Shown here: positions 20,288 to 22,162 of the stretch, one piece after another
Numbering within the stretch: position 1 is the stretch's first letter
How the letters are laid out: every line of letters begins with the position of its first letter
Assembly (NCBI GenBank): GCA_017409475.1
Contig: JAFQSP010000003.1
Coordinates: 310,001 to 374,000 of the forward strand
Direction: 5' to 3'
DNA length: 64,000 nt
From: Clostridia bacterium
GTDB taxonomy: Bacteria; Bacillota; Clostridia; Oscillospirales; Acutalibacteraceae
Translations under genes and position numbers: made by a program
Notes under the pieces: model-generated
Database searches by the model: none
What the model was told of the DNA's origin: nothing
What the model saw: the letters and a program-made list of their open reading frames with translations, nothing else

Positions 20288-20362
<75 letters not shown>

Positions 20363-20363
20363 G

Positions 20364-20396
20364 AAAAACTCCTTGAGATTTCTCAAGGAGTTTTTT
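20364..20396 (+). terminator. Rho-independent terminator of tRNA-Cys
   Basis: An 11-bp or longer perfect inverted repeat (ACTCCTTGAGA and its complement) is followed by six T, directly after the encoded CCA. Confidence 0.95.
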
Positions 20397-20397
20397 C

Positions 20398-20570
20398 AGT
20401 TATATTCGCCTTCGGCGAGTGATATTGCTTCGCAGTGATATTTGAACTTCGTTCAAGTGATATTCGCTTCGCGAGTTTTGGTGACGAATATAATATCACT
20501 TTTGCGTAAGCAAAAATATCACTATGCCGTAAGGCATAATATCACTCTGTGCGAAGCACAGAATATCACT
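20398..20570. repeat. Inverted array of mini-palindromes with 9-bp spacers
   Basis: Seven different perfect mini-palindromes stand in a row. Four left ones (20407-20417, 20427-20433, 20443-20455, 20465-20473) have TTC loops and follow AGTGATATT at 20418, 20434 and 20456 (a one-mismatch copy at 20398). Three right ones (20501-20514, 20524-20537, 20547-20561) have GTAA or GAA loops and are bounded by AATATCACT, the exact reverse complement, at 20492, 20515, 20538 and 20562. Spacers are constant while stems differ in sequence and length. The four left and four right spacers can pair in order to give a ladder with opposed hairpin arms. No open reading frame is present. Confidence 0.9.
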
Positions 20571-20572
20571 AA

Positions 20573-20649
20573 TGAGTAAATTTTTATAATAAACTCCACG
20601 AACTGTTGAGTTGCGACGGATTGAATATTCTTTTTACTCAAATATGAGT
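20573..20649. repeat. Inverted repeats between the palindrome array and the XRE gene
   Basis: TGAGTAAA (20573-20580) recurs as TTTACTCA (20633-20640), enclosing a segment with its own small hairpin (around AACTGTTGAGTT, 20600-20611). ACTCA-AATA-TGAGT (20636-20649) forms a palindrome just upstream of the -35 box of the XRE gene, so it is a candidate operator for that repressor. This is inferred from position and symmetry only. Confidence 0.45.
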
Positions 20650-20710: not shown

Positions 20711-21088
20711 ATGAATGAATTAAAAGTTGGTACAAGAATTGCCGAATTAAGAAACATAAATAACACAACTCAACTTGAACTTGCAGAAAAGTTAGGCGTC
20801 ACTGACCGTGCGGTAAGCAAATGGGAAACTGGTGGTGGCTATCCTGATATAGCGTTGCTTCCGCAAATTGCAGATATTTTTAATGTTAGTGTTGATTATT
20901 TGTTATGTGGCAAAAAGAGTATAAAACAAGAAATATACATTGATTATGCTAACAATAAATACAACGATTTTGTCAACAATCATTACTTATCTGCTGGTTG
21001 GAAAATTGTTGTTATGAAACTTTCAGGTGATGGCGAAGGTGCGTGTATGTGTGCCGTTTTATTGGAAAAAGAAATATTTGAAGATTAA
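20711..21088 (+). CDS. XRE-family helix-turn-helix transcriptional regulator
   Basis: The 125-residue protein has an N-terminal XRE/Cro-type helix-turn-helix (about 5-65) with TQLELAEKLGVTDRAVSKWETG and the following YPDIALLPQIADIFNVSVDYLL. Its C-terminal part (70-125), including YNDFVNNHYLSAGWKIVVMKL and GEGACMCAVLLEKE, looks like a small alpha-beta sensing or dimerisation domain that I cannot name. A strong AAGGAGG site precedes the ATG. It lies between two repeat-rich stretches downstream of tRNA-Cys. Its targets are unknown; autoregulation through the palindrome at 20636-20649 is possible. Confidence 0.88.
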   Translation: MNELKVGTRIAELRNINNTTQLELAEKLGVTDRAVSKWETGGGYPDIALLPQIADIFNVSVDYLLCGKKSIKQEIYIDYANNKYNDFVNNHYLSAGWKIVVMKLSGDGEGACMCAVLLEKEIFED

Positions 21089-21138: not shown

Positions 21139-21247
21139 AAAGCCCCAAGGACGATAAGTTCTTGGGGCTTACTTCTTATCTATTACCTCTTCACTCTTAC
21201 CTCAAAAAGTCCTTGGGGCTTTGGGAAGTAACAAGTAATAGGTAAGA
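21139..21247. repeat. Nested inverted repeats before the four-helix-bundle gene
   Basis: AAAGCCCCAAGGAC (21139-21152) is an exact 14-base reverse complement of 21209-21222, and part of it also pairs with CTTGGGGCTT at 21161-21170, so two alternative hairpins compete. Inside, TCTTATCTATTAC (21174-21186) pairs with 21235-21247 with one mismatch. The stretch is rich in short TTACC/GGTAA motifs. It fills the 240-base gap between the XRE gene and the next gene. Confidence 0.75.
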
Positions 21248-21263
21248 GTTAATATGTTTTTTT

Positions 21264-21328: not shown

Positions 21329-21679
21329 ATGGTGGATAGTCCGTTGATTACTAAATCCAAAGAATTTGCTTTGCAGATAATTAAGGTTTGTAATTTTGTA
21401 AAACAAACTAAAAAGGAAACTGTTCTTACAAATCAGCTTATCCGTTCAGGAACATCAATTGGCGCAAATATCCGTGAAGCCTTTTACGGACACGGAACTG
21501 CTGATTTTATTGCAAAACTTCAGATTGCTCTGAAAGAGTGCAGTGAAAGTGAATATTGGTTAGAACTTTTAATTGAAAGCGGTTATTACGATAACAAAGA
21601 TATTCTTGATAAGTGTATTGAAGTAAAGAAATTGCTTATATCATCAGTAAATACTGCAAAAAGCAAGAAAAATAAATAA
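21329..21679 (+). CDS. Four-helix-bundle protein (S23/bAvd-like)
   Basis: This 116-residue protein matches the four-helix-bundle family that includes proteins encoded in 23S rRNA intervening sequences and is related to the Avd accessory protein of diversity-generating retroelements. Family traits are KEFALQIIKVCNFVKQTK, the LTNQLIRSGTSIGANIREA signature and FIAKLQIALKECSESEYWLELL. The family forms pentameric barrels that bind nucleic acid in studied Avd proteins. The start at 21329 follows GAAGGGCGG; an in-frame ATG 75 bases upstream lies in the repeat region and lacks a site. No reverse transcriptase or rRNA gene is in the window, so it stands as an orphan. Confidence 0.88.
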   Translation: MVDSPLITKSKEFALQIIKVCNFVKQTKKETVLTNQLIRSGTSIGANIREAFYGHGTADFIAKLQIALKECSESEYWLELLIESGYYDNKDILDKCIEVKKLLISSVNTAKSKKNK

Positions 21680-21690
21680 GGAAAATAATT

Positions 21691-22095
21691 ATGGGTTTAT
21701 TCGATTTATTCAAGAAAAAGAAGGTTAAATTAACAGAAGACCAGCTTAAAAGAAATAAGATGTGGGCTTTGTGGACTGAAGGAGAAGTTGAGTCACCTTA
21801 TGCAGAATTGATGACCTATCAAGGTGAAATCAATAACGGTGGTCATAGTCAATATTTTTGCAATATTAAAAACAATGATGATTTAAGTAAAGAAATGTCT
21901 ATATTGGAAAATATCTTATCTGATAAACTTATTGATAATTTGCATAAAGCATACAAAGCATATCTAATTTTAGAAGAAAACGAGTATGATGAAAAGGCTG
22001 AAGAGATAATAGAACAATGTGATGATACTTTTTATGAAAATGAAGAAGAAATCAATAATAAATTACAAAAGTATGCTGATAAAATTCAATTATAA
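21691..22095 (+). CDS. DUF4375-like (DMP19-type) acidic protein
   Basis: The 134-residue protein starts with a short basic stretch (LFKKKKVKL), then a domain whose MTYQGEINNGGHSQYFCN segment matches the NGGxxQYF signature of the DUF4375/DMP19 family. The last 50 residues are strongly acidic (LILEENEYDEKAEEIIEQC and onwards). The Neisseria protein DMP19 is a DNA mimic that binds a helix-turn-helix repressor; whether this protein acts that way is unknown. It begins 11 bases after the four-helix-bundle gene, likely in one transcript, and is followed by a terminator. Confidence 0.7.
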   Translation: MGLFDLFKKKKVKLTEDQLKRNKMWALWTEGEVESPYAELMTYQGEINNGGHSQYFCNIKNNDDLSKEMSILENILSDKLIDNLHKAYKAYLILEENEYDEKAEEIIEQCDDTFYENEEEINNKLQKYADKIQL

Positions 22096-22129: not shown

Positions 22130-22162
22130 AAATCCGTTCTTTAACGAGAACGGATTTTTTAT
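22130..22162 (+). terminator. Terminator after the DUF4375-like gene
   Basis: An 11-bp perfect stem (22130-22140 with 22147-22157), 6-base loop and T-run close the accessory gene cluster before feoA. Confidence 0.92.

What the first reader, a model, noticed from the sequence alone, without database searches (positions are those of the whole stretch)
20398..20570. Ladder of seven mini-palindromes joined by an inverted 9-bp spacer
Seven different perfect palindromes (7-15 bases, 3-4 base loops) sit between constant spacers. Spacers on the left read AGTGATATT, those on the right read its exact reverse complement, four on each side. In a single strand, spacers would pair in order to give four 9-bp helices separated by junctions that each carry two opposed mini-hairpins, like stacked four-way junctions. 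Left hairpins have TTC loops closed by C-G; right ones have GTAA (GNRA-type) or GAA loops; GCGAAGC and its complement GCTTCGC are known unusually stable mini-hairpins. Stems vary while spacers do not, so the array may grow by unit duplication. It fits no repeat family I can name with certainty and stands right after a tRNA gene.
Basis: partly seen in the sequence, partly recalled or inferred. Interest (0 to 1): 0.78.

Follow-up and report, generated by a model that had tools for sequence, protein, structure and literature searches.

The report
Hairpin array heading tRNA-linked gene cassettes
A string of tiny hairpins behind a bacterial tRNA gene, one half of which was already catalogued as an RNA of unknown function, looks like the front end of a small mobile gene cassette that slips in between tRNA genes and their stop signals.

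Summary
The array is real (20398-20570): seven palindromes, three AGTGATATT plus one AGTTATATT spacer on the left, four exact inverse spacers on the right. Its left half passes Rfam's threshold for Gut-1 (RF01706), an 'sRNA' of unknown function; its right half matches on the other strand below threshold. So Rfam holds half of an inverted element. Gut-1 matches occur in 73 of 148 genomes searched. Of 122 matches examined, 98 show the inverted right half (mechanical finder) and 52 lie 24-45 nt behind a tRNA (15 types) or tmRNA gene, usually after a hairpin terminator. At one tRNA-Met locus three species of one genus carry three different inserts between the tRNA end and the same downstream terminator. 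PF05635 genes (23S rRNA-intervening-sequence protein, related to Avd of diversity-generating retroelements) co-occur with Gut-1 across genomes (odds ratio 20) and can follow such arrays directly (12 of 39 by a strict test; more by eye). Best reading: terminator, hairpin array and often a promoter form the 5' module of mobile gene cassettes at tRNA/tmRNA 3' ends, PF05635 being a frequent gene and possible mobility partner. The mechanism is inferred. The regular 'ladder' fold is stable but not the predicted minimum.

The parts
20288..20362 (+). tRNA-Cys(GCA), insertion target
   Evidence: ARAGORN; Rfam tRNA
20364..20395 (+). H0: Rho-independent-terminator-like hairpin, probably part of the mobile module
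   Evidence: 15-bp arms; its 28-nt core occurs 4 times in 148 genomes, each time followed by a Gut-1-type element (followers read by eye)
20398..20406 (+). first left spacer AGTTATATT; with H1 it forms arm A
   Evidence: 20400-20408 is complementary to 20485-20493 (I9)
20407..20417 (+). hairpin H1 CGCCTTCGGCG
20418..20473 (+). left array: AGTGATATT at 20418, 20434, 20456 with hairpins H2 (20427-20433), H3 (20443-20455), H4 (20465-20473)
20397..20468 (+). Rfam Gut-1 RF01706 match, 53.9 bits (cut-off 50)
20485..20493 (+). A' CGAATATAA in the centre, complementary to arm A
   Evidence: I9; covariation over 89 elements
20492..20570 (+). right array: AATATCACT at 20492, 20515, 20538, 20562 with hairpins H5 (20501-20514), H6 (20524-20537), H7 (20547-20561)
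20511..20588 (-). second, sub-threshold Gut-1 match on the opposite strand (39.9 bits)
20711..21088 (+). helix-turn-helix (HTH_3) gene directly downstream, presumed cargo
21139..21249 (+). second element of another type: hairpin AAAGCCCCAAGGAC.., TC-rich repeats, centre GTCCTTGGGGCTTT complementary to the hairpin arm, partly inverse repeats
   Evidence: by eye; BLAST similarity of 21138 onward to the L192 and L202 elements
21329..21679 (+). PF05635 23S rRNA-intervening-sequence protein (IVP) gene
   Evidence: 1.8e-24; PDB 2rld 2.3e-26
21691..22095 (+). DMP19-like gene, presumed cargo behind the IVP gene
22130..22159 (+). terminator-like hairpin, presumed original end of the tRNA-Cys unit, ahead of an ORF that looks like feoA
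   Evidence: by eye; similar gene order in G001, L334, by eye

Best explanation
The array is the 5' module of a small mobile gene cassette that inserts between the 3' end of a tRNA or tmRNA gene and that gene's original terminator. The module brings a replacement terminator (H0), a hairpin array of fixed design (left array, centre A', inverted right array) and often a promoter, and is followed by an accessory gene. The form that is seen shared as a block encodes a PF05635 (IVP, Avd-related) four-helix-bundle protein right after the array; copies without it would be non-autonomous, as REPINs are to RAYTs. Shown here: architecture, covariation, placement, different inserts at one orthologous locus, association with PF05635. 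Inferred: that the array, exposed as single-stranded DNA or RNA, is bound by the PF05635 protein and marks the element for transfer; which enzyme cuts and joins is unknown.
For: Placement: 53 of 122 elements have a same-strand tRNA or tmRNA ending within 160 nt upstream; 52 of these RNA genes (15 tRNA types, 9 tmRNA) end 24-45 nt upstream; 1 element has an opposite-strand one. In a differently chosen, named set: 25 of 56 sites in Clostridia-like records, 0 of 14 in records of other phyla (I sorted the records by title). A hairpin of stem score 9 or more lies directly upstream in 99 of 121 (no shuffle control). Locus: at tRNA-Met, G003 (Gut-1 plus ORF), G000 (TC-type element, PF05635 gene, cytidine deaminase gene) and G001 (another insert) share the left flank up to 1-4 nt past CCA and the right flank from about the same terminator. 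Block: L180 and L197, from genomes of different families, are 91% identical from H0 to the PF05635 stop only; related array+PF05635 blocks (69-87% identical) follow tRNA-Leu, -Ala, -Arg and -Cys. Partner: genome co-occurrence 59 both, 14 Gut-1 only, 13 PF05635 only, 62 neither, p = 4e-15; comparison families Y1_Tnp OR 1.04 and RVT_1 OR 0.97. Strict array test upstream of PF05635 genes: 12 of 39, versus 1 of 780 shuffles and 1 of 300 other windows. PF05635 ORF within 1 kb downstream in 9 of 63 named Clostridia-like sites, 0 of 13 others. Covariation: arm A pairs with the centre by 9 bp or more in 62 of 89 elements versus 2.9% of 6028 combinations of different arms. Promoter-like site after the array in 23 of 84 versus 8.5 expected; TGnTATAAT in 12 of 84 versus 34 of 2849 other windows.
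Against: Only 17 of 122 Gut-1 entries have a PF05635 ORF inside the stretch read, 10 of them downstream, though stretches differ in length. Twenty-seven of 39 PF05635 loci fail the strict array test; 14 of 73 Gut-1-positive genomes have no PF05635 match. Co-occurrence is not corrected for phylogeny or assembly quality. No target duplication or right end was established for elements without PF05635. No empty site was found. No enzymatic activity of PF05635 proteins is known to me. Sixty-nine of 122 entries have no tRNA/tmRNA found within 160 nt upstream on the same strand. The next gene points the other way in 24 of 81 cases. Right-array stems are less perfect than left ones (169 of 248 segments without mismatch against 202 of 220). 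The same 28-nt terminator is joined to four different arrays, so modules may be shuffled instead of moving together.
Confidence: 0.6

Rival explanations
1. Gut-1 is, as Rfam has it, an independently expressed structured small RNA.
For: Left-half stems are well kept (202 of 220 segments without a mismatch, 150 distinct stems); G-T pairs outnumber A-C mismatches on the + strand slightly (72 to 47 over both halves); original classification in PMC2864571 (passages).
Against: In the tRNA-linked copies the array starts directly at the T-run of a terminator-like hairpin, which leaves little room for its own promoter; the right half matches the same model on the opposite strand; promoter-like sites are enriched downstream.
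Confidence: 0.12
2. It is a cis-acting RNA element: tRNA 3' trailer or 5' leader that controls the gene behind it, possibly through binding of the PF05635 protein.
For: In L070 and L199 the start codon follows the array within about 30 nt, so the array would be in that mRNA (by eye); arm A can pair with its hairpin partner or with the centre, which resembles a switch.
Against: Where a promoter-like site follows the array (for example L049-L051, L180, L184; by eye) the array would be outside the mRNA; elements precede many unrelated genes and, in 24 of 81 cases, the next gene is on the other strand.
Confidence: 0.13
3. Cassettes are moved by a tyrosine recombinase of the host or of another element acting at tRNA 3' ends; the hairpin array is a folded attachment site, as attC is in integrons.
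For: tRNA and tmRNA 3' ends are classical integrase targets (recalled); a second small insert family at the same place leaves a duplicated tRNA 3' end; several cargo genes are GNATs (those scanned were picked by eye).
Against: 15 tRNA types plus tmRNA lie directly upstream, unlike a one-site integrase; only two of the elements tested had a near copy of the pre-hairpin sequence downstream (L095, L111, not followed up). Integrase genes were not searched for, so this rival is little tested.
Confidence: 0.25
4. BIME-like repeats: passive bidirectional terminators or DNA-topology sites between genes, spread long ago, with no link to the cassettes.
For: Some copies lie between convergent genes (L045, L047); inverted palindromic units like BIMEs.
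Against: Strong orientation bias to tRNA genes, adjoining PF05635 genes, block shared between families.
Confidence: 0.1

Closest known systems
Gut-1 RNA, Rfam RF01706
   Same: The left half meets the family's gathering score (53.9 against 50 bits) over all 77 model positions.
   Different: Rfam models only the left half, as an sRNA; here it is half of an inverted element with terminator-like hairpin, centre A', right array and cassette context.
REP/BIME and REPINs mobilised by RAYT (Y1_Tnp) proteins (recalled)
   Same: Hairpins with a constant flank in inverted arrangement, intergenic, many copies, presumed dependence on a protein encoded by some copies.
   Different: Y1_Tnp shows no association; the candidate protein is PF05635; arrays have up to seven hairpins and prefer tRNA 3' ends.
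23S rRNA intervening sequences with S23/IVP genes (e.g. PMC4990558, abstract read)
   Same: PF05635-type gene in a small, structured, horizontally acquired insert linked to a structured-RNA gene.
   Different: Insert sits behind tRNA/tmRNA genes, not inside rRNA, and has its own array, terminator-like hairpin and often a promoter-like site.
Integron cassettes with attC sites (recalled)
   Same: Small accessory genes with a folded site, different inserts at one locus.
   Different: No integrase known or searched for; many tRNA targets; array lies 5' of the gene and often brings a promoter-like site.

Membership tests
Rfam Gut-1 (RF01706) | score at or above the gathering threshold | tested here: met
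   53.9 against 50 bits, (left half, + strand; the right half is below it)
Rfam Gut-1 (RF01706) | expressed as a noncoding RNA | not testable with these tools
   no transcript data
REPIN/RAYT system | Y1_Tnp (RAYT) gene associated with the repeats | tested here: not met
   28/45/28/47, OR 1.04, (genome level only)
REPIN/RAYT system | inverted hairpins with constant flanks | tested here: met
   98 of 122 entries by a mechanical finder with some false calls both ways
23S rRNA intervening sequence | location inside a 23S rRNA helix | tested here: not met
   the window copy and many others lie behind tRNA/tmRNA genes; no rRNA match in the seven own-genome loci scanned
23S rRNA intervening sequence | PF05635 gene in the insert | tested here: inconclusive
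   17 of 122 entries nearby; 12 of 39 PF05635 genes have a strict array upstream
Diversity-generating retroelement | reverse transcriptase together with the Avd-like protein | tested here: inconclusive
   RVT_1 not associated with Gut-1 at genome level (OR 0.97); neighbourhoods of PF05635 genes not scanned for it
Integron cassette | integron integrase and attC | not tested
   no integrase search was made

The most novel reading that the evidence does not exclude
A class of mobile elements without a recognisable transposase, in which an Avd/IVP-type four-helix-bundle protein and a hairpin array together place gene cassettes between tRNA or tmRNA genes and their terminators; the same protein family in rRNA intervening sequences and in retroelements would then reflect one ancestral role in handling folded nucleic acid for insertion.
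Probability: 0.35. Interest if true: 0.88.

Novelty: new variant of a known kind. Interest (0 to 1): 0.72.

Why it matters
It gives an orphan Rfam 'RNA' an anatomy, a preferred site and a candidate protein partner, and gives PF05635 proteins outside rRNA a testable role. It also marks tRNA and tmRNA 3' ends of gut Clostridia as places where small accessory genes differ between species. My nine paper searches (open PubMed Central text only, and of the long answers I saw only the 12-20 papers listed) showed no account of this.

Tried and rejected
Chance local repeat: rejected. Free unit duplication: 61 of 98 elements are 170-183 nt long by the finder; L046 is longer with extra right units. Y1 transposase and reverse transcriptase as partners: no genome-level association. 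Duplicated tRNA end as target duplication: copies within about 260 nt were all upstream and belong to another insert family (L056, L058, L065, L083, L131, L134); other hits (L095, L111 downstream; L126, L129, L157 far upstream) were not followed up. Target-adapted A' guide, considered for the TC-type elements, set aside because similar H0 hairpins occur in different genomes and places (L193/L194, L192/L202; by eye). A first test for arrays upstream of PF05635 genes with 6-mers also gave 12 of 39; both strict tests miss arrays with altered spacers that are plain by eye or BLAST (L176, L179, L180, L185, L187, L197). Strand preference from wobble pairs: weak. The left/right spacer comparison is partly circular, because the grouping word was chosen with both halves in view. 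Not analysed: loci L287-L324 and the viral loci L325-L331.

Full report
What is there. The array at 20398-20570 is as described, with one spacer different (AGTTATATT at 20398) and a terminator-like hairpin (20364-20395) between it and tRNA-Cys. It folds far better than dinucleotide shuffles as RNA and as DNA. The literal four-step ladder is stable (-52.2 kcal/mol as RNA) but 13.6 kcal/mol above the predicted minimum.

It belongs to a named family. cmscan puts 20397-20468 in Rfam Gut-1 above the gathering score, and 20511-20588 on the other strand below it. Gut-1 was reported as a probable noncoding RNA seen only in human gut samples, with no function given in the passages I read (PMC2864571). 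The double match shows that Rfam's model is one half of an inverted element.

Distribution. Gut-1 matches at E 0.001 or better occur in 73 of 148 genomes (own genome included), 59 above the cut-off; of 14 control genomes E. coli also rings, below the cut-off. The laxer run rang below the cut-off in 4 of 14 controls. The window's genome has eight elements.

Anatomy. I oriented 122 entries: 8 from the own genome, 30 loci returned by the search, and 84 from the top-ranked list; the sample leans to high scores and repeats some genomes and contigs (whose output was cut, so I read only part by eye). A mechanical finder sees an inverted right array of two or more copies in 98; it has false calls both ways (odd words such as CTTCGC; L149 missed). 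In 89 of suitable length, arm A pairs with the centre by 9 bp or more in 62, against 2.9% of 6028 combinations with different arms. TGAAAT-type and TGATAT-type spacers match their own right halves (partly circular). Eleven entries that I could read show a left array only (L067, L074, L127, L139, L140, L143, L150, L150b, L154, L156, L161; by eye). A hairpin lies directly upstream in 99 of 121 (L046 and L051 were missed for position reasons). The 28-nt core of the window's hairpin occurs four times in 148 genomes, each time with a Gut-1-type element right behind it, but with four different arrays, so the hairpin seems to belong to the module while modules appear to be recombined.

Placement. Fifty-three of 122 follow a same-strand tRNA or tmRNA within 160 nt; 52 of those RNA genes (15 tRNA types, 9 tmRNA) end 24-45 nt upstream. 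One entry is behind an opposite-strand tRNA; none has an opposite-strand RNA gene within 400 nt downstream. A set selected by DNA pattern, which may share species with the first, gives 25 of 56 Clostridia-like sites, and 0 of 14 elsewhere; the inverted half is seen in 56 of 65 and 0 of 14.

One locus, three inserts. The tRNA-Met loci of G000, G001 and G003 (one genus) share flanks on both sides but contain three different inserts between CCA and about the same terminator; two of five genomes of the genus gave no match to the query. The window's tRNA-Cys locus looks similar by eye: Gut-1 plus HTH gene plus a second element with PF05635 and DMP19 genes here, TC-rich repeat elements with other genes in G001 and G003.

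Partner gene. PF05635 occurs in 72 of 148 genomes; 59 genomes have both, 14 only Gut-1, 13 only PF05635, 62 neither. I read 39 PF05635 loci, chosen by me from the ranked list so as to include genomes without Gut-1 matches. A strict test finds hairpin arrays upstream in 12, against 1 of 780 shuffles and 1 of 300 other windows; further loci show arrays by eye or BLAST. Many of the others are preceded by other short repeats, some (L192, L193, L202) with a similar logic of hairpin, repeats, complementary centre and inverse repeats (by eye). Blocks shared between different tRNA sites include the array and the PF05635 gene. Behind PF05635 the next ORF varies and in several loci starts within or near the stop codon: cytidine deaminase in L202 and GNAT in L199, DMP19 in the window. 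The protein matches PDB 2rld; a 2023 paper notes that PF05635 resembles Avd, and its reference for the related 2gsc describes five four-helix bundles (PMC10053308, passages).

How it may work. The left and right arrays give the same hairpin motif on opposite strands, and arm A can pair with its hairpin partner or with the centre, so the element has at least two exclusive folds. I infer that one of them, in single-stranded DNA or in RNA, is recognised by the PF05635 protein, and that host or foreign enzymes do the cutting. Nothing here tests that step. Against it: most arrays have no such gene in the stretch read, and I know of no catalytic activity of the family.

Verdict. The local feature is a member of Gut-1; what Gut-1 is deserves revision. 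The cassette reading is well supported, the PF05635 partnership moderately, the mechanism only suggested.

Noticed in passing
L056, L065, L083, L131, L134, L188 (also L058, L073, L138, L153), upstream of Gut-1: A second small insert of roughly 200 bp at tRNA/tmRNA 3' ends, with its own terminator-like hairpin and a second copy of about the last 16 nt of the RNA gene (found by search in L056, L065, L083, L131, L134). By eye, L056, L065, L134 and L188 also hold a reverse complement of the T-arm, and L065 and L188 the hairpin AACAGTCCGGTGGACTGTT.
   Followed up: partly
L163-L165, L168, L169, L172, L173, L175, L178: PF05635 genes without Gut-1 arrays are preceded by short tandem repeats such as GTCAGTAAGTCAGTGAGTCAGTGG or AATTCATAATTCATAATGCATAATGC (by eye).
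   Followed up: no
L062/L084 (G066:C43): Three tandem Gut-1 elements about 290 bp apart behind one tRNA-Leu, the third with a broken right half.
   Followed up: no
L046 (G000:C8:1-4000): A Gut-1 element behind an ORF that looks by eye like the C-terminal part of a large serine recombinase.
   Followed up: no
L325-L331 (IMG/VR contigs): Seven viral contigs match the Gut-1 spacer pattern, three of them twice; whether they are true elements was not checked.
   Followed up: no
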